A stretch of 32,231 nt of DNA from a virus: positions 1 through 32,231 of IMG/VR virus record IMGVR_UViG_3300005613_000260; one strand, given 5' to 3'. Shown here piece by piece: positions 3,553 through 30,324 of the stretch. The first letter of the stretch is position 1, and each line of letters begins with the position of its first letter. The position numbers and the translations under genes are program-made. The notes beneath the pieces are model-generated. The model made no database searches and was not told the origin of the DNA. It saw nothing but the letters and a program-made list of their open reading frames with translations.

Positions 3553-4044
3553 ATGATACATGAGACAGCAATAATCGAGAAAGGCGTAATATTAGGTAAG
3601 AACGTAAGCGTCGGAGCCTATTCAGTAATCGGAACACCAGCTGAAATGAAAGGCGAGGAAGGAATATCTGGCCGAGTAAGAATAGGAGACAATACGGTAA
3701 TCAGAGAACACGTTACAATACACTCTTCGAGATTCGCAGACAAGTTAACCGACGTTGGAAATGATTGCTATATTCAGGCTCATTCTCATATCGGACACGA
3801 CTCGAAGATAGGAGATAATGTTACTATTGCTTGTTTTGCTTGTATTGGAGGCCATAGTATCATAGGCGACTGGTGTAATTTAGGACTCCATGCAATTACT
3901 CACCAATTCACCGAGATAAAAAAAGGGACCATGTTAGGGGCTGGAGCATTCGCAAAGGGGATAATAGACTCTTGGAGCGTTTATGTAGGAGTTCCAGCAA
4001 AGAGAATAAAGGCAAACGAATATCTAATTAAAAAACTTCGATAA
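3553..4044 (+). CDS. LpxA-like hexapeptide-repeat acyltransferase
   Basis: Left-handed beta-helix acyltransferase related to UDP-N-acetylglucosamine O-acyltransferase, expected to move an acyl group from an acyl carrier onto a sugar hydroxyl. The 163 residues are mostly hexapeptide repeats (IEKGVI-LGKNVS-VGAYSV pattern). His79, His82, His101 and His117 have the same motifs and spacing (SHIGHD, GGHSII, THQF) as the active-site histidines His122, His125, His144 and His160 of E. coli LpxA, so it looks catalytically intact. It lacks the roughly 70-100 residue C-terminal helical domain of LpxA. It has its own promoter, and its TAA overlaps the next gene's ATG. Substrate is unknown: a virion glycan, a nucleotide sugar or host lipopolysaccharide are options. 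Confidence 0.85.
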   Translation: MIHETAIIEKGVILGKNVSVGAYSVIGTPAEMKGEEGISGRVRIGDNTVIREHVTIHSSRFADKLTDVGNDCYIQAHSHIGHDSKIGDNVTIACFACIGGHSIIGDWCNLGLHAITHQFTEIKKGTMLGAGAFAKGIIDSWSVYVGVPAKRIKANEYLIKKLR

Positions 4045-4967
4045 TGTTTACGCTATTAGTACCTATCTGGAAAAGACCAAAGTTGACCGAGAGAGTAATA
4101 AATTACTATAAGGTAAGACAAAAGAAATTCGGGTTTAGATTGGTAGTAGTAGGATCAGAGGACGAGGACTATGGTAAAAAAATGGGCGTAGATTATGTTC
4201 ACTCCGACAATTATCCGGTAAGTAGAAAGTGGACAAACGGAGCAAAGGGTTGTATTGATACGAGTTCAGAGGGTATTTTAATGGCTGGAAGCGACAACTA
4301 CATGAGCGACGAGTTACTGACTTACATAGGCAGCTTAAAAGGAAATACAGAATATTGTTTACAATGGAAGGAATGTTACTTCTACCGTTGCTCAGATACA
4401 AAATTGAGCCTTTGGAGTTCGGGCAAAATGGGAGTGGGGAGATTCTTTTCAAGGTCCGCTTTAGAGAAAGTTGATTACACTCTATTCACCCAAGACACAA
4501 AAGAGAACAACGCACTCGACCATCACGTCCATACTCACTTTAGAAGTCATGGCGTAGAGTGGATAAATAAAAGTCTATTCGATATTGACGCTTACATTAT
4601 TGACGTGAAATACTCCGACAATTTAAGCCCTCACGCAATAACTGACGCTGGACCAGTTCGAGACGTTTCTATCTTACCTACCTATATTCAAAAAGAATTG
4701 GTAATTTTGAATAAATTATTCGACCAAGAGCCTAAAGAGCAAAAGGTCAAAAGATTAAATTTAAAAGGTATGCAAGTAATTACGGCAATAAAGCACTCAG
4801 CGAGTAAAATGGTTCCAGGTAGAGACTACGAAGTATCGGACGAATTAGCCGAGATTCTAATCAATAAAGGAATGGCCCACTTGAAAGGCCAAGAGCCAAA
4901 GAAGGTAGAACCAAAGGTAGAAGCACCAAAAGAAGCACCTAAGAAGAAGCCAAGAGCAAAGAAATGA
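4044..4967 (+). CDS. GT-A glycosyltransferase-like protein with extra C-terminal domain
   Basis: The N-terminal ~215 residues look like a nucleotide-sugar transferase of the GT-A fold: LLVPIWKRPKLTERV at the start, VVVGSEDEDYGKK after strand two, and ILMAGSDNYMSDE (81-90), where SDN is in the place of the DxD metal motif. A distinct segment follows (about 243-280), with the pattern VPGRDYEVSDELAEILINKG as in small head-tail connector proteins, and then a Lys/Pro/Glu tail (KVEAPKEAPKKKPRAKK). Coupling to the acyltransferase (TAATG) and to the next structural gene (ATGA) suggests both act on virion proteins or their glycans. The variant metal motif leaves room for a non-catalytic role. Confidence 0.68.
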   Translation: MFTLLVPIWKRPKLTERVINYYKVRQKKFGFRLVVVGSEDEDYGKKMGVDYVHSDNYPVSRKWTNGAKGCIDTSSEGILMAGSDNYMSDELLTYIGSLKGNTEYCLQWKECYFYRCSDTKLSLWSSGKMGVGRFFSRSALEKVDYTLFTQDTKENNALDHHVHTHFRSHGVEWINKSLFDIDAYIIDVKYSDNLSPHAITDAGPVRDVSILPTYIQKELVILNKLFDQEPKEQKVKRLNLKGMQVITAIKHSASKMVPGRDYEVSDELAEILINKGMAHLKGQEPKKVEPKVEAPKEAPKKKPRAKK

Positions 4968-15100: not shown

Positions 15101-16057
15101 ATGGCAACTCGAACAAGAACGGCACTTCAAACACAGATAGATACTTTACTACCTGATAATAACGTCGAGGCGATAAGCGCAGCCGATACAAGAAGCACTC
15201 AAACGGATTTAAACGACTCTAACTTTAATCTGAATACGGACGACTCCGACGACATTACAGAGGGGGCCAGTAACTTGTTTTTAACCACTTCTGAAAGGAC
15301 TTTAATCAGTACGGCAGAACAAGCGGCAAACAAAGGAGCTGCAAACGGTTACGCTTCATTGGGTGCTGATAGTAAAGTTCCAGCGGCTCAGATTCCAGAC
15401 ATTGCAGTCAGTGAGTATTTAGGTTCAGTAGCTAATCAAACGGCCATGTTAGCCTTAACTGGTGAAAAAGGCGACTGGTGTACTCGAAGCGATACGGGAA
15501 CAAATTTCATTATTACTGGTGCTGATCCTTCGGTTATTGGAGGTTGGACTGAACTAAGCTATCCAACTGCACCCGTAACGAGTGTAAATAGTGCGACGGG
15601 AGTAGTAGTACTTGATTTAGATAATATTGCTGACTCTGCGACAAGAATAGCCTTAACAACTGGGATACAAGAATTTCAAGGTGCTAAAACCTTTGAAGGT
15701 GCAGTAACATTTAGCTCAACCGTTGCGGCTGGAAGTATTACGGGATATAGGCCAGTAGTGAATATTACTACTTCGGATAACCTTGATACGGTTGCTAAAA
15801 ACTCAATGAATGTATGTGACACGACTTCTGGAGCGATAGTGATTACTGTAAACGACGCAGCAGACTCAGCCGACGCAATAGGCACAGAATATGAGTTCTT
15901 TCATTCGGTTGGAGGTAATACGGTAACCTTTGGGGTAACTGGAAGCCAAGCGATAATAAGCAAGGATTCAAATGTTCAAATTACGGGTATTGGTTCGGCT
16001 GCGGTTCTTAAAAAGATAGCGGCCAATACTTGGGCTTTAATCGGAGACCTCGCATGA
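15101..16057 (+). CDS. tail fibre / collar-type protein, 318 residues
   Basis: Contains a phrase common to many phage fibres, KGAANGYASLGADSKVPAAQ followed by IPDIAVSEYLGSV, then a carbohydrate-module-like EKGDWCTRSDTGTNFIITG leading to GGWTELSYPTAPVTSVN and SATGVVVLDLDNI. These elements occur at fibre shafts and tips. The C-terminal ~100 residues form a strand-rich knob (IVITVNDAADSADAIGTEYE) ending in AANTWALIGDLA. The gene has its own promoter, and its TGA overlaps the start of the lectin gene (ATGA), so the two are likely parts of one adsorption apparatus. Confidence 0.78.
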   Translation: MATRTRTALQTQIDTLLPDNNVEAISAADTRSTQTDLNDSNFNLNTDDSDDITEGASNLFLTTSERTLISTAEQAANKGAANGYASLGADSKVPAAQIPDIAVSEYLGSVANQTAMLALTGEKGDWCTRSDTGTNFIITGADPSVIGGWTELSYPTAPVTSVNSATGVVVLDLDNIADSATRIALTTGIQEFQGAKTFEGAVTFSSTVAAGSITGYRPVVNITTSDNLDTVAKNSMNVCDTTSGAIVITVNDAADSADAIGTEYEFFHSVGGNTVTFGVTGSQAIISKDSNVQITGIGSAAVLKKIAANTWALIGDLA

Positions 16058-16728
16058 TAGGCTCAAGAGTAGGGATATATGGTCAGGGGGGTGTAGTTCC
16101 TTTCGCCTTCGGCAATGCTTTACAATTTGACGGGGTAAATGATTATGTTTCGTTTGCTAGCATTAATCATGGAATCACATTTACATTTTCATTTTGGTTC
16201 AAGCCCGACACATTTACAGGCACTATCTTCGGAGATAGTGGTAGTGCTACTTACATTGTAAGATTAGTTAACAGCACAACATTCCGATATGCCGCAGGTG
16301 GTTTTGCAAGGGATTTTACAATCCCAACATTAACCACAGGCGTTTGGTATCATGGAATGTTATCTTCTAATGGTGCAGGTTCAAATTTAAGGTTTTATTT
16401 AAACGGTGTTGAAAGCACAACAGGAGCATTAGGCGCAGTAACAGGTACAACAAATCAACTTGGTAGATATTCTACTACCACAAGCGTTCAATATGGTGGA
16501 GTGTTAGATGAATTGGCTATTTCGGTAGGTTACGCAGGGAGTTTAGCCAACGCTGCTGCATTATACAACAGTGGAAATGGTGCCTTCGCTAAAGATATTT
16601 TAAGTAATGTTGTTGCTTATTGGAGAATGAACGGAGTATCAGGAGATTCAACAGCAGTTGATGAACAAGGCACTTATAACGGAACTTTAAACAACTTTCC
16701 AGCAAGTGGAATGTGGGTGCCTCATTAA
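16054..16728 (+). CDS. LamG / concanavalin-like lectin domain protein
   Basis: 224 residues from the ATG that overlaps the fibre stop (an upstream TTG at 16030 is less likely). Typical LamG signs: NALQFDGVNDYVSF near residue 25, TFSFWFKPDTFTG, VWYHGMLSSNG, LRFYLNGVES, and GGVLDELAISVGYAGSL. Such domains bind carbohydrate, so this is a candidate receptor-binding tip or adhesin. Its base composition departs from the neighbours: Thr is mostly ACA, Asp often GAT, and it holds two of the few GATG tetramers outside the ParB-TET cassette. That fits a recently exchanged host-range module. Confidence 0.82.
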   Translation: MIGSRVGIYGQGGVVPFAFGNALQFDGVNDYVSFASINHGITFTFSFWFKPDTFTGTIFGDSGSATYIVRLVNSTTFRYAAGGFARDFTIPTLTTGVWYHGMLSSNGAGSNLRFYLNGVESTTGALGAVTGTTNQLGRYSTTTSVQYGGVLDELAISVGYAGSLANAAALYNSGNGAFAKDILSNVVAYWRMNGVSGDSTAVDEQGTYNGTLNNFPASGMWVPH

Positions 16729-25237: not shown

Positions 25238-26544
25238 TTGAAGAAGTAGAAAGGGCGGTACTTGGTGCGATAGTTATAGACGCTGAGGCTCTGGAGGACG
25301 TTATAAATTTATTAAGTGTTGATATTTTCGAGGACAAGAAAGCCAAAACGATTATTCAAATCATTTTAGACCTTTACAAAAAAGGCGACAAACACGACAT
25401 TCTTACTATTTCTGAGGAAATCAAAAACAGAAACTTATTTCACATTGTTACGGTTATGGACGTGGCAAGTCTTACAAATGGAATAAATGGAAGTTGGCAA
25501 CTCGAAACTCATATCCGTATCCTTCACCAACGCTGGATAAGAAAAGAAATAAGAAAGTCAGGAAACGAACTACTAATCCAGGCCGACGATTACGAAATAG
25601 ACTCGTTGGACTTATTAGGAAAGGCCGAGACGACGTTGAACACGATAAACAACCTAATCGTTAAAGGAGAAGTAAAAAGCACTCAGAGCATAGCGAAAAA
25701 CGTACTAGCAAAGAATGAGAAGATAATTCAGAACGAGAAAGGATTGAGTGGTATTCCTTCTGGCTTTGGATACTTGGACAAGGTTACTGGAGGTTGGCAA
25801 GATAGCGACTTAATTATTTTGGCAGCAAGGCCCGGAATGGGTAAGACTTCACTTGCTTTAAATCTATGGGCAAGACCAGCAATCAATCATAATATTCCTA
25901 CGGCTTTCTTTAGTTTGGAAATGAGCGCAGAGCAATTATTTCAGAGAGTTGTGAGCCAAGAATCAGGAATACCTTTATCGAAAATAGCAAGAGATGGAAT
26001 TAGGGGAGAAGATTTAAAAGCGTTTGAAGGTTGGGTTGAACATTTAGCAAGTCAGCCTTTAAGCATAGACGATACTGGAGGAATAAGTATATCCGACTTT
26101 CATTCTAAAGCCTCGAAGCTAAAGCGAGAAAAAAACATTCGATTGATCGTGATAGATTACTTGCAGCTAATGACTTCTGGAGTAAAGAGCCATTCACAAA
26201 ACCATGAAGTAGGGTTAATTAGTGGAAAGTTAAAAATGATTGCAAAGGAGTTGAATGTTCCGATCATAGTATTAAGCCAGTTGAGTAGAGCCGTCGAACA
26301 AAGGGGGGGCGCAAAGAAGCCAGTATTAAGCGATTTGCGAGACTCAGGAAGCATAGAGCAAGATGCAGATATGGTAATGTTTTTATATCGACCAGAATAC
26401 TACGGAATAACCTCCGACGAACTAGGAGAAAGCACCGAAGGGCTAGCTGAGTTAGAAATAGCGAAACATAGGAACGGAAGCCTCTCGACGATTGAATTAG
26501 AATTTATACCGAGTAGAACTACTTTTGAGAATAGAAAATTTTGA
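25234..26544 (+). CDS. dnaB: replicative DNA helicase, DnaB family
   Basis: Hexameric 5'-3' helicase at the phage fork. The N-terminal domain ERAVLGAIVIDAEALEDVIN matches DnaB. The RecA-like core has Walker A in ARPGMGKTSLALN (198-210), FFSLEMSAEQLFQRV, Walker B in LIVIDYLQLM, the arginine-finger region SQLSRAVEQRGGAKKPVLSD, LRDSGSIEQDADMVMFL, and the C-terminal KHRNGSLSTIELEF. 436 residues is a normal phage length. No primase gene is visible beside it, so host primase is probably recruited. Confidence 0.96.
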   Translation: MIEEVERAVLGAIVIDAEALEDVINLLSVDIFEDKKAKTIIQIILDLYKKGDKHDILTISEEIKNRNLFHIVTVMDVASLTNGINGSWQLETHIRILHQRWIRKEIRKSGNELLIQADDYEIDSLDLLGKAETTLNTINNLIVKGEVKSTQSIAKNVLAKNEKIIQNEKGLSGIPSGFGYLDKVTGGWQDSDLIILAARPGMGKTSLALNLWARPAINHNIPTAFFSLEMSAEQLFQRVVSQESGIPLSKIARDGIRGEDLKAFEGWVEHLASQPLSIDDTGGISISDFHSKASKLKREKNIRLIVIDYLQLMTSGVKSHSQNHEVGLISGKLKMIAKELNVPIIVLSQLSRAVEQRGGAKKPVLSDLRDSGSIEQDADMVMFLYRPEYYGITSDELGESTEGLAELEIAKHRNGSLSTIELEFIPSRTTFENRKF

Positions 26545-26546
26545 GA

Positions 26547-27167
26547 ATGAAACCAAAGAAATGTAAATACTGTAAGTCGGACTTTGATCCGGTTCGGCCA
26601 CTTCAACAATGTTGCTCATTTGACTGTTCGATACTCTACGCCAAAGAGCAGCAAGAGAAGAAAAGAGCAGCTTCCTGGAGGCAAAAAAAAGCCCGAATGA
26701 AAGAAGCTATTAAAAGTTTATCGAGTTACAAAAAGGATTTACAAATATTGGTTAATGAGATAGCGAGGAGAATCGACCACGACCAAGAATGTATATCATG
26801 CGGAACCAAAGAAGGAAAAATAAACGGAGGCCACTTTCATTCGGTTGGGTCTAATCCAGCGTTAAGATTTAACCTTTTGAATATATTTCGCCAGTGCGAG
26901 AAGTGTAATTCTTATCTATCTGGAAACCTTTTGAACTATGAGAAAGGACTTGACGAAACATTTGGAGAAAGTGTCAAATATGAGATAAAATACAAATTAC
27001 CGATTTTAAGCCCCGAACTAAAGGCGACTAAGGAAGAACTAAAGGAAGCTATAAAAAACGCAAGAGAAGCCGTTAAAAGGCTAATCAAAGAGGAAAAACG
27101 ACTATCGAACCGAGAAAGAATAGAACTAAGGCGAGAAATAAATAAAAAGTTAGGATTGTATCAATAA
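26547..27167 (+). CDS. ninG: NinG/Rap-type recombination endonuclease
   Basis: Phage endonuclease that cuts branched DNA. I start at ATG 26547; a TTG at 26541 overlapping the helicase stop is possible. The product opens with a zinc knuckle (KKCKYCKSDFDPVRPLQQCC then SFDC). After a charged helix it has an HNH-like motif: CISCGTKEGKINGGHFHSVG followed by LRFNLLNIFRQCEKCNSYLS and GNLLNYEKGL. That arrangement is characteristic of lambda NinG. The C-terminal 60 residues are highly charged helix. Completes the recombination set with Rad52-like protein, exonuclease and SSB. Confidence 0.9.
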   Translation: MKPKKCKYCKSDFDPVRPLQQCCSFDCSILYAKEQQEKKRAASWRQKKARMKEAIKSLSSYKKDLQILVNEIARRIDHDQECISCGTKEGKINGGHFHSVGSNPALRFNLLNIFRQCEKCNSYLSGNLLNYEKGLDETFGESVKYEIKYKLPILSPELKATKEELKEAIKNAREAVKRLIKEEKRLSNRERIELRREINKKLGLYQ

Positions 27168-27197: not shown

Positions 27198-27902
27198 ATG
27201 AACACTATGAATATTTACAGAAAATTTTGCCCAAATGTATTTGTGGCGCAATGTGATGAAAGGCATGAAAAAGGCGAAGTAATCATTATGACCACAAAAT
27301 ATGGTAAGGAGATTGAAAATGAAGTTCACAACCTAATAGGTAGAACAAGAGAAGGGTTTTATCTTTATTCGATTACCAGGATTGACGGTTTTAATAGTCA
27401 AGAGAGAGCGAAAAGAAAAGCTGAGAAATTAGGCGGTTATGCTGCTAATGCAGAAAAGAGAAGTGACCAACATTACCAAGCATCAAAAGAGGGTGCTGAT
27501 TTTCTTGCACTTGGAGAACCGATAAAAGTTGGACACCACTCAGAGAGAAGACACAGAAAACTAATTGAGCGTAATTGGGATAGAATGGGTAAATGTGTTG
27601 CTGAGAGCGATAAGGCTAAGGAATACGAAAGAAGGGCTGAATATTGGGCCGAACGAGCAAACAAAATAGACTTATCAATGCCAGATAGCCTAGAGTATTT
27701 TGAATTTGAACTCGAAAAAGCAAAAAAATACCACCAATTCTTAAAAGACAATCTAGATAAAAGACCACACTCAATGAGTTTGCAATATGCTAATAAAGCG
27801 GTAAAAGACCTAAAGAATAAAGTTGAGACTGCAATTAGATTATGGGGTGACCATGAAGAAATAGAACTTTTGAAGCGTGAAAAAGAAGCTGGAAAATTTT
27901 AA
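27198..27902 (+). CDS. DUF3560-family protein, 234 residues
   Basis: Matches DUF3560, found in phages and mobile elements, often beside antirestriction genes. Residues 70-130 carry the family phrase RKAEKLGGYAANAEKRSDQH, then FLALGEPIKVGHHSERRHRK, with the GHHSERRHR core. A Lys/Glu-rich coiled coil (YERRAEYWAERANKIDLSMP onward) follows. Function is not established; the neighbourhood suggests a role in protecting or modifying phage DNA. Codon style differs from DnaB and NinG upstream (more GAT, AAA, GAA; one GATG and one CATC), so it may be a separate acquisition. Confidence 0.8.
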   Translation: MNTMNIYRKFCPNVFVAQCDERHEKGEVIIMTTKYGKEIENEVHNLIGRTREGFYLYSITRIDGFNSQERAKRKAEKLGGYAANAEKRSDQHYQASKEGADFLALGEPIKVGHHSERRHRKLIERNWDRMGKCVAESDKAKEYERRAEYWAERANKIDLSMPDSLEYFEFELEKAKKYHQFLKDNLDKRPHSMSLQYANKAVKDLKNKVETAIRLWGDHEEIELLKREKEAGKF

Positions 27903-28229: not shown

Positions 28230-28826
28230 ATGAGTAAAGTAAACGATTTTAAAACTGAGACTATCTCACTAAACGAGATAAAAAATAACCCGAATAACCC
28301 TCGATTAGTAAAGGACGTTAAGTTCAAGAAGCTGGTTAAGTCAATAAAGGAATTTCCGGAAATGCTTAAAATCAGGCCGATAGTAGTAAACAAGGATATG
28401 ATAGTTCTTGGTGGCAACATGAGACTAAAAGCGTGTAAAGAAGCTGGACTAAAAGAAGTGCCTATAATTCGAGCCGAAAACCTGACCGAAGAACAACAAA
28501 GAGAGTTTATCATTAAGGATAACGTAGGCTTTGGTGAATGGGATTGGGATTTATTAGCAAACGAATGGGATGCTATCCAGCTTGGTGAATGGGGTTTGGA
28601 TGTTTGGCAACCTGATGAGGATGTAGACTACTCAATACTAGATGAAGAGGATGTAGACGACCAGCTTCAAGACATGGCTGATGGCGTGAAAAAAGCTATT
28701 CAAATTGAGTTTGAGCCTGACCACTATGACGAGGCTTACGAGTTGGTTAAGTTTTGGCGAGACCAAGACGCCTACGTTGGTAAGATGATTCTTGACTTCT
28801 TGAAATCTGAAAAGAACAAGATATGA
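28230..28826 (+). CDS. ParB/Srx-fold protein of a DNA-modification cassette
   Basis: ParB-like N-terminal domain (about 10-95): NPNNPRLVKD, IKEFPEMLKIRPIVVNKD, the nucleotide-binding GGNMRLKACKEAGLKEVP. The C-terminal half has GEWDWDLLANEWD and a long helical tail. Phage ParB-like proteins of this kind are known neighbours of TET/JBP oxygenases and DNA glycosyltransferases, where they may direct base modification. Two compositional halves meet near 28530. The first 100 codons are in the genome's GAC/CGA style with no GATG. The rest has eight GATG in about 220 bp, so the gene looks like a chimera. Four-base ATGA overlap with the glycosyltransferase. Confidence 0.82.
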   Translation: MSKVNDFKTETISLNEIKNNPNNPRLVKDVKFKKLVKSIKEFPEMLKIRPIVVNKDMIVLGGNMRLKACKEAGLKEVPIIRAENLTEEQQREFIIKDNVGFGEWDWDLLANEWDAIQLGEWGLDVWQPDEDVDYSILDEEDVDDQLQDMADGVKKAIQIEFEPDHYDEAYELVKFWRDQDAYVGKMILDFLKSEKNKI

Positions 28827-29536
28827 AATGCCTTGTTTGCATACCAAGTAAGGCAAGACCAAACAACATAAAGAAGTATGTTGAGCCGTTTATGCAAAGG
28901 TTGGGGCTTGATTATAAGATATTCGTTGAGCCGCAAGATGCTGAACAATACAGATTGTCAAACGTAGTGCTTCTTGATGCAAACGACAAAGGGTTAGGAT
29001 ACGCTACTTCATTTGCCAAGAAATACGCTGAAGAAAACGGCTACGACCTTGTTTTTAAAATAGATGACGATACCAAAGCTATAGGCAATATTGAAAAAGA
29101 CATTGAAAGAATCATAAAGGCTTTCGACATACAGAGGGTTGGTGCGGTTGTATTTCCTTATGCTTTTGAGTGGTACGCCAAAACAGAAAAATTATTTACT
29201 CGATCGAACAAGCGGATACAAACTTGTTATATCATAAGAACAAAGTTATGGAGGCCAAATGAATCCGTTAGCACCTTCGAGGATTTCTACGAGTTCCTTC
29301 TTCTGCGTAATGACAATTACGATACATTGTATTGTTCAAAGCATTTAATTGACTGCGCACCAGTCGGGGGAGGTACTGGCGGTTTGCAAATTTTTGACCG
29401 TTCAGAAATGGCTTTGAATGAGATTAACATATTCAAAAGCATTGACCCGACAATTAAGGTGATAGCTAAGCCTGATAAGTCTTGGAAATATGAGCCTAAG
29501 TTTACGGATAAGAAATACAGAAGCAAAAAGATATGA
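28823..29536 (+). CDS. GT-A glycosyltransferase, predicted DNA-base glycosyltransferase
   Basis: 237 residues with the GT-A layout: CLVCIPSKARPNNIKKYVEP at the N-terminus, a DANDKGLGYATSFAKKYAEE strand-helix, and the metal motif in YDLVFKIDDDTKAIG (Asp81-Asp83). Near the C-terminus it has GGGTGGLQIFDRSEM, typical of a nucleotide-sugar loop. Coupled by overlaps to the ParB-like gene (upstream) and the TET/JBP dioxygenase (downstream), it is expected to add a sugar to a hydroxymethylated base in DNA. Distinct from the glycosyltransferase at 4044, which has SDN in place of DDD. Three GATG here mark it as part of the acquired segment. Confidence 0.82.
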   Translation: MKCLVCIPSKARPNNIKKYVEPFMQRLGLDYKIFVEPQDAEQYRLSNVVLLDANDKGLGYATSFAKKYAEENGYDLVFKIDDDTKAIGNIEKDIERIIKAFDIQRVGAVVFPYAFEWYAKTEKLFTRSNKRIQTCYIIRTKLWRPNESVSTFEDFYEFLLLRNDNYDTLYCSKHLIDCAPVGGGTGGLQIFDRSEMALNEINIFKSIDPTIKVIAKPDKSWKYEPKFTDKKYRSKKI

Positions 29537-30324
29537 AACGAATAGACCTCAATAAGTTAGAACACTCTGTAAAGATTGGCGACCAATGCCCAGCGTTTGA
29601 ACCTAACGTAACAGAGGACTGCATATTCTATGCTGATGGTGAGCCGATTGGCTTCTTTATGCGACAGATGCCTGAGAAGATGTGTAAGTTGGCAGACCTT
29701 GCAGATAAAGAGTTTAGAAGTGAAAATGTGCCTAAGTCGTTAATGGATAGAGTTTCAAGCATAAAAGGAAAATTCAAGCATACCGCCACTAATAAAGGGC
29801 AAGGCGTTGAACAATACTCCGTAATATTAGGATCCGTGCCACCAAAGCCAATGGTACGCAGACCATATCCTACAAGGTCAAGCGTTCATTCTGTAAAGGC
29901 AGCGCAAACTTTTATAAAGTCTATGTTATTGCTTGCAAAGGAAAGCGAGAAGCTGATAGCTGAAATAATACCTGAGCAATACCAAAGACAAAAGGAACTA
30001 TTCGAGCAAGTGCCTGACCAATGGAAGTTCAAGAACCTATTCACTTCGTCAATCAGCAACTACAATATCAGCGCACCGTTTCACAGAGACACGGGAAACA
30101 TACAAGGAGCAGTAAACGTAATAATCACAAAGCGGAGAAATAGCAAAGGCGGAAATCTTAACGTGCCCGACTACGGTGCTACAATTGACCAATGCGACAA
30201 CTCGATTTTAGTTTACCCAGCGTGGAAAAATATACATGGAGTTACACCTATTGAACCAACATACGAAGGCGGTTTTCGTAACTCTTTGATTTTTTACCCA
30301 TTAAAAGCATTCATGGGATTATGA
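29533..30324 (+). CDS. TET/JBP-family 2-oxoglutarate/Fe(II) dioxygenase
   Basis: Predicted to hydroxylate the methyl group of a pyrimidine in DNA (5-methylcytosine or thymine). The catalytic double-stranded beta-helix spans about 170-263. Iron ligands are His184 and Asp186 in APFHRDTGN and His235 in WKNIHGVTPI; the 2-oxoglutarate-binding Arg249 is in GGFRNSLIFYP. The GGNLNVPDYGA strand-turn is typical of TET/JBP. The ~165-residue N-terminal part is longer than the core of small phage TETs; its DGEPIGFFMRQMP and RPYPTRSSVHSVKAAQTF are probably DNA-facing. It is coupled by overlap to the glycosyltransferase. No cytosine methyltransferase gene is visible anywhere in the genome. Confidence 0.85.
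   Translation: MKRIDLNKLEHSVKIGDQCPAFEPNVTEDCIFYADGEPIGFFMRQMPEKMCKLADLADKEFRSENVPKSLMDRVSSIKGKFKHTATNKGQGVEQYSVILGSVPPKPMVRRPYPTRSSVHSVKAAQTFIKSMLLLAKESEKLIAEIIPEQYQRQKELFEQVPDQWKFKNLFTSSISNYNISAPFHRDTGNIQGAVNVIITKRRNSKGGNLNVPDYGATIDQCDNSILVYPAWKNIHGVTPIEPTYEGGFRNSLIFYPLKAFMGL

What the first reader, a model, noticed from the sequence alone, without database searches (positions are those of the whole stretch)
28230..30324. ParB + glycosyltransferase + TET/JBP cassette without a methyltransferase: predicted DNA base hypermodification
Three overlapping genes encode a ParB-like protein, a GT-A glycosyltransferase with an intact DDD motif, and a dioxygenase with His184-x-Asp186, His235 and Arg249 in TET/JBP order. 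Published phage TET systems usually act on 5-methylcytosine made by a phage methyltransferase. I see no methyltransferase here. Either host methylation is used, or the enzyme oxidises thymine directly to 5-hydroxymethyluracil, which is then glycosylated. That would be a phage analogue of the trypanosome base J route in a Bacteroidetes virus.
Basis: partly seen in the sequence, partly recalled or inferred. Interest (0 to 1): 0.9.

Follow-up and report, generated by a model that had tools for sequence, protein, structure and literature searches.

The report
Phage cassette for sugar-decorated thymine
A small virus of bacteria carries a three-gene kit that probably oxidises thymine in its own DNA and attaches a sugar to it, and hundreds of other viruses carry the same kit with the decorating enzyme swapped for another one, which makes it a good test case for how viruses change the chemistry of their DNA.

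Summary
Window 28230-30324 holds three 4-bp-overlapping genes: a ParB-domain protein, a TAGT-family GT-A glycosyltransferase and a TET/JBP dioxygenase with all Fe/2OG residues. The window is a closed genome (123-bp terminal repeat) without a detectable C5-methyltransferase. New here: (1) ParB-TET is a conserved frame around a variable slot in hundreds of IMG/VR contigs and in Prochlorococcus phage isolates. The slot holds TAGT, an FkbM methyltransferase, an amino acid:DNA transferase with a kinase, or nothing. (2) C5-methyltransferases are rare beside it (3 of 27 records of at least 27 kb, window included). (3) Slots with amino acid:DNA transferase and kinase, and ParB-TET actinophages with such genes, point to 5-hydroxymethyluracil as the intermediate. 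(4) The residue equivalent to TET2 His1904 is Leu or Ile. I favour direct thymine oxidation followed by glycosylation (about 0.65). Against it: the closest relative, L006, carries a C5-methyltransferase, and TAGT is named from 5-hydroxymethylcytosine systems. Thymine oxidation by phage TETs was already proposed for actinophages, so this is a variant of a known kind. No biochemistry was available; the sugar, the modified fraction and the role of ParB are unknown.

The parts
28230..28826 (+). ParB-domain (Srx-like fold) protein, 198 aa; frame gene 1 of the cassette; Pfam reports no DNA-binding HTH domain
   Evidence: PF02195 32.8 bits at residues 10-98; conserved in 117 distinct homologues with near-invariant N23, G62, R65, A68, D97, N98, W121, G122
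28823..29536 (+). TAGT-family GT-A glycosyltransferase, 237 aa; the slot gene
   Evidence: PF20691 34.1 bits; D82 and D83 of the DDD motif invariant in 30 homologues; model pLDDT 92.2, closest solved folds GT-A enzymes such as GalNAc-T2 (Z 17.1)
29533..30324 (+). TET/JBP 2OG-Fe(II) dioxygenase, 263 aa; frame gene 2 of the cassette; Fe ligands H184, D186, H235; 2OG R249; N189 = TET2 N1387; L257 = TET2 H1904
   Evidence: PF12851 46.8 bits; invariant residues; alignment to TET2; fold
26541..26552 (+). Junction of the dnaB and ninG genes where the sister phage L006 carries a 229-aa C5-cytosine methyltransferase and the window has none
27198..27902 (+). DUF3560 protein; in L006 an N6/N4-type methyltransferase stands here. 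Association with the cassette not shown
   Evidence: PF12083 140.5 bits; L006 ORF 3454-4128 with DPPY motif

Best explanation
The three genes form a self-contained, transferable cassette for post-replicative DNA hypermodification. The TET/JBP enzyme most likely oxidises the 5-methyl group of thymine in phage DNA to 5-hydroxymethyluracil. The TAGT enzyme then transfers a sugar from a host nucleotide-sugar to the hydroxymethyl group, giving a base-J-like glycosylated 5-hydroxymethyluracil that shields the DNA from restriction. The ParB-domain protein, nearly always next to the slot and TET, probably binds DNA or a nucleotide and delivers or activates the TET enzyme (inferred only). Shown: gene order, intact active sites, fold, absence of a detectable C5-methyltransferase, slot swapping. 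Inferred: base, sugar, function.
For: Closed genome without a detectable C5-methyltransferase. TET-bearing records of at least 27 kb: 3 of 27 have PF00145, window included; rate per 100 kb 1.16 and 0.19 in the two TET clades against 0.70 in TerL kin, where only 2 of the loci L094-L157 gave a TET hit. The same ParB-TET frame holds ADDT in L075, L023 and L080, with a P-loop kinase in L075 and L080 and GATase_6 or an FAD/NAD-binding protein; characterised relatives of ADDT and its kinases act on 5-hydroxymethyl-dU (Lee et al. 2018 and 2022, own knowledge). Actinophages Kozie and Hangman pair TET with ADDT and P-loop nucleotide kinase 3, Tonitrus pairs it with an aGPT-Pplase2 protein and that kinase, and none of these has PF00145. 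The TET2 His1904 equivalent is Leu in all 131 homologues with a letter there and Leu or Ile in the actinophages. The catalytic C-terminal 96 residues of L006 TET differ by one residue from the window's, though only L006 has the methyltransferase. No CpG or GpC depletion in the window (rho 1.03, 1.00). Cassette homology with L004 starts in ParB and stops at the TET end, while TerL is 35% identical.
Against: TAGT is named from phage systems in which TET makes 5-hydroxymethylcytosine from 5-methylcytosine (Burke et al. 2021, known to me only through PMC12730594 and memory). Ten of 50 window-clade records carry a C5-methyltransferase, including the nearest relative L006. N189, equivalent to TET2 Asn1387, is kept. 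The closest solved folds are 5mC enzymes, though such a fold does not fix the base. Kinetoplastid JBP sequences were not on hand, so JBP pocket residues were not compared. Host methylation cannot be excluded.
Confidence: 0.65

Rival explanations
1. Ordinary 5mC route: host C5-methyltransferases (or a phage one in some relatives) make 5-methylcytosine, TET turns it into 5-hydroxymethylcytosine, TAGT glycosylates it.
For: L006 and 9 more of 50 window-clade records have PF00145 genes; closest solved structures are 5mC enzymes; published phage TET work is on 5mC (PMC12730594 citing Burke et al. 2021).
Against: Methyltransferase absent from the closed window genome and from 24 of 27 large records; not clearly enriched with TET; placed at varied sites and of different types. 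56 of 87 Prochlorococcus genomes lack PF00145, so host methylation would be a patchy substrate for the cyanophage members. No CpG/GpC depletion.
Confidence: 0.22
2. The TET enzyme is promiscuous and oxidises both thymine and 5-methylcytosine, so a C5-methyltransferase adds a second modified base when present.
For: L006 and window TET share the catalytic region with one difference, with and without the methyltransferase; NgTET1, the best structural match, is reported to accept thymine weakly (own knowledge).
Against: No direct evidence for dual activity; methyltransferases are not clearly enriched and may only protect against host enzymes.
Confidence: 0.09
3. The cassette acts on something else (host DNA or RNA, tRNA as the PHROG label 'queuine tRNA-ribosyltransferase' would suggest) or is not expressed.
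For: PHROG 6059 carries that label.
Against: The protein has the TET/JBP fold and active site and no tRNA-ribosyltransferase match in Pfam or NCBIfam; the label is an evident mis-annotation. Partners in relatives are DNA-modifying families.
Confidence: 0.04

Closest known systems
Actinophage TET thymidine hypermodification operons (Rhodococcus phage Tonitrus, Mycobacterium phage Hangman, Microbacterium phage Kozie)
   Same: TET/JBP with a kinase and an amino-acid transferase or aGPT-Pplase2 gene near the genome end, ParB-domain gene beside it in Tonitrus and Hangman, no C5-methyltransferase found
   Different: TET only 23-30% identical to the window's; the window has a glycosyltransferase instead of kinase plus transferase, placed between ParB and TET
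Prochlorococcus phages MED4-184, MED4-117, P-HS2
   Same: ParB - slot - TET - small gene - TerL order in MED4-184; TET 52% identical in all three
   Different: MED4-184 slot gene is an FkbM methyltransferase, which predicts O-methylation rather than glycosylation
Phage 5mC-TET systems with TAGT (Burke et al. 2021)
   Same: TET plus TAGT-family glycosyltransferase
   Different: Those systems have a phage C5-methyltransferase (own knowledge and PMC12730594); none detected here.
Base J pathway of kinetoplastids (JBP1/JBP2 plus JGT)
   Same: TET/JBP-superfamily oxygenase plus a glycosyltransferase, as predicted here on thymine
   Different: GT family not compared with JGT; no J-binding domain tested; JBP sequences not on hand
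dUMP-hydroxymethylase thymidine hypermodification (phages PhiW-14, ViI, M6)
   Same: Relatives of the window's cassette carry ADDT and P-loop kinases in the slot
   Different: There 5hmU is made at the nucleotide level by a thymidylate-synthase homologue; Pfam found no such gene in the window; here a TET would make it in DNA

Membership tests
TET/JBP dioxygenase (PF12851) | Double-stranded beta-helix with HxD...H iron ligands and Arg for 2OG | tested here: met
   46.8 bits over cut-off 34.9; conserved H184, D186, H235, R249; fold match to NgTET1 and TET2, Z 19
TAGT glycosyltransferase (PF20691) | Profile match above gathering score and DDD motif | tested here: met
   34.1 bits over 27.5, match covers profile positions 3-93 of 205; D82 and D83 invariant; GT-A fold
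ParB partition protein | ParB_N domain plus a DNA-binding HTH domain; score over the curated partition-protein cut-off | tested here: not met
   Only ParB_N is found; TIGR00180 29.6 bits against cut-off 58.45. A ParB-domain protein, not filed as a partition protein
5mC-TET phage system | C5-cytosine methyltransferase in the phage genome | tested here: not met
5mC-TET phage system | TET acts on 5-methylcytosine | not testable with these tools
   Needs enzyme assay or nucleoside analysis
TET-based thymidine hypermodification | TET with 5hmU-specific enzymes (kinase, amino-acid transferase) | tested here: inconclusive
   Found in relatives L075, L023, L080; the window itself has TAGT in the slot
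Base J pathway | Thymine hydroxylation followed by glucosylation | not testable with these tools

The most novel reading that the evidence does not exclude
A phage-borne mobile frame of two constant genes, ParB-domain protein and thymine-oxidising TET, writes 5-hydroxymethyluracil into DNA, and an exchangeable slot between them decides the final base: glycosyl (TAGT; this phage, a base J analogue), O-methyl (FkbM methyltransferase; cyanophages), amino-acid derived (ADDT plus kinase) or bare hydroxymethyl (empty slot). Swapping the slot lets phages change DNA chemistry without changing the writer.
Probability: 0.5. Interest if true: 0.8.

Novelty: new variant of a known kind. Interest (0 to 1): 0.6.

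Why it matters
It would give a prokaryotic, two-enzyme counterpart of the base J route and a modular system in which one slot sets the DNA modification, spread over hundreds of phage contigs. Cyanophage isolates with the same cassette exist, so both the substrate question (T or 5mC) and the predicted O-methylated base can be settled by mass spectrometry on phages in hand. It would also supply a family of small DNA-decorating enzymes.

Tried and rejected
Prophage and host route: the genome-contig scan with the TET found no relative, so host methylation could not be tested on real phage-host pairs. The second scan was used to reach Prochlorococcus: 56 of 87 genomes of the genus have no PF00145, but strain MED4 could not be picked out, so that argument stays statistical. 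Idea that the variable TET loop (residues 73-90) tracks the slot enzyme: not supported, similar loops occur with different slots. IMG/VR scan with the Tonitrus TET found nothing. Dinucleotide signatures: window CpG and GpC near 1, other genomes mixed, weak evidence only. PHROG label queuine tRNA-ribosyltransferase: rejected. Burke et al. 2021 and 'Pathways of thymidine hypermodification' were not held; statements about them rest on secondary citation or memory. I know of no solved catalytic structure of JBP, so closeness to TET rather than JBP in the fold search says little.

Full report
Observation. Pfam places all three above their gathering scores: ParB_N 32.8, TAGT (TET-Associated Glycosyltransferase, PF20691) 34.1, Tet_JBP 46.8 bits. 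The dioxygenase model (pLDDT 90.5) matches NgTET1 (Z 19.4) and human TET2 (Z 19.1) end to end. H184, D186 and N189 are invariant in all 134 homologues, and H235, R249 and Y255 in the 131 with letters there. The glycosyltransferase model (pLDDT 92.2) is a GT-A fold, with D82 and D83 of the DDD motif invariant in 30 homologues.

Completeness and methyltransferase. The window's first and last 123 bases are identical, so it is a closed phage genome; the recognisable genes are all on the + strand. PF00145 gives no hit, no ORF has a C5 motif pair, and profiles built from the methyltransferases of relatives give at best E 0.41. Nearly all plausible window ORFs were scanned against Pfam and no methyltransferase or thymidylate-synthase-like gene was found.

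A conserved frame with a variable slot. An IMG/VR scan with the TET protein confirmed 383 relatives (80 kept), and a second scan with the cyanophage MED4-184 TET confirmed 166 (80 kept; the overlap between the two scans is not known). ParB and TET flank the same position in most loci that reach far enough, while TerL is mostly 29-43% identical. With L004 the nucleotide match to the window starts inside ParB (28275) and stops near the end of TET (30311), the TAGT gene being 95% identical, while TerL is 35% identical at the protein level: the cassette moves as a unit between distantly related phages. The slot holds TAGT-like genes of several families (45 proteins joined by BLAST, window included), FkbM methyltransferases (PF05050 48 bits for L006; fkbM_fam 58 bits for L006 and MED4-184; 83 loci by BLAST), multi-gene inserts in L023, L075 and L080, or nothing (L019, L020, L225, L226, L243-L246); the 27-kb record of L020 has no TAGT, FkbM, ADDT or kinase match elsewhere by my profiles. 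On a TET tree of 71 rows the slot class needs at least 19 changes, or 30 if TAGT families are told apart (a quick tree with many weak branches, and one row counted as unknown there, L274, was later seen to be TAGT-like). ADDT slots and empty slots each fall in three separate places.

Which base. Three lines favour thymine. First, C5-methyltransferases are not a constant part of the cassette: of TET-bearing records of at least 27 kb, 1 of 12 in the set, 2 of 14 in the cyanophage-type set and 0 of 1 for the window have PF00145. Per 100 kb the rates are 1.16 and 0.19, against 0.70 in TerL relatives, among whose loci only L122 and L123 gave a TET hit. Those found differ in type and position. Many records are fragments, so these are rates, not proofs of absence. 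Second, the slots of L023, L075 and L080 hold ADDT (42, 71 and 41 bits), with a weakly matching P-loop kinase in L075 and L080, GATase_6 (below its gathering score) in L023 and L075, and an FAD/NAD-binding protein in L080. Characterised relatives of these enzymes act on 5-hydroxymethyl-dU in phages such as ViI, M6 and PhiW-14 (Lee et al. 2018 and 2022, own knowledge). Actinophages Hangman and Kozie pair TET with ADDT and P-loop nucleotide kinase 3; Tonitrus pairs TET with a gene annotated aGPT-Pplase2 and the same kinase; no PF00145 was found in these genomes. The Tonitrus authors call it a possible thymidine hypermodification system (PMC11955845). Caulobacter phage Cr30 also has Tet_JBP, ADDT and a weak TAGT match without PF00145. 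Third, TET2 His1904, which contacts the cytosine (own knowledge of the TET2-DNA structure), aligns with Leu257, invariant in the 131 homologues with a letter there, and Leu or Ile in the actinophage enzymes; Asn1387 is kept as N189.

Natural comparison. L006 has the window's backbone (dnaB, ParB, TerS, TerL 98-99%, ninG 95%) but a different slot gene (FkbM), a short C5-methyltransferase (PF00145 26.8 bits, PPCP and ENV motifs) between dnaB and ninG, and an N6/N4-type methyltransferase where the window has DUF3560. Its TET differs from the window's by one residue in the C-terminal 96. One catalytic domain thus serves phages with and without the methyltransferase, so the methyltransferase is probably not required. 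It could also mean that host methylation suffices or that the enzyme takes both bases; the data do not separate these.

Mechanism. Shown: gene order, motifs, fold, absence of a detectable methyltransferase, slot exchange. Inferred: TET oxidises thymine in DNA to 5-hydroxymethyluracil; TAGT adds a sugar; the product protects against restriction; the ParB-domain protein, which has no HTH match, assists the TET. The sugar and the fraction of bases modified are unknown.

Novelty. TET-based thymine hypermodification has been proposed before, and TAGT with TET is known, so this is a new variant of a known kind. The exchangeable slot, the FkbM variant in cyanophages and the glycosylated version without a methyltransferase are what I would follow up. 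Whether the exchangeable slot has been described in papers outside the library held here I could not check.

Noticed in passing
window 29533-30324; phage records NC_020847.1, NC_011044.1, NC_051587.1 and others: PHROG 6059 labels this TET/JBP family 'queuine tRNA-ribosyltransferase', and many RefSeq phage records carry the wrong name.
   Followed up: partly
L001 (MED4-184) 15790-16431: Annotated 'DNA methylase' (CPAG_00033) but it is the cassette's ParB-domain protein; the window's ParB matches only the N-terminal part of the PHROG 498 DNA methyltransferase profile, which may explain the name.
   Followed up: partly
L359 7347-8675, 10373-11602, 11584-12510 (Caulobacter phage Cr30): Gene annotated 'putative SNF2 DNA repair protein' is Tet_JBP (74 bits), with ADDT (179 bits) and a weak TAGT match 2-3 kb downstream and no PF00145 in the 156-kb record: an isolate in which to test TET-made hypermodified thymine.
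   Followed up: partly
window 27198-27902: DUF3560 protein (140 bits) stands where L006 has an N6/N4-type methyltransferase; DUF3560 may have a modification- or restriction-related role.
   Followed up: no
L358 5815-8086 (Arthrobacter phage Prairie): TET followed by a weak TAGT match and an annotated glucosaminyl deacetylase, which hints at an amino-sugar decoration.
   Followed up: no
window 3553-4044 and 4044-4967: Hexapeptide-repeat acyltransferase-like gene and an unassigned gene lie between the capsid gene and the next structural genes.
   Followed up: no
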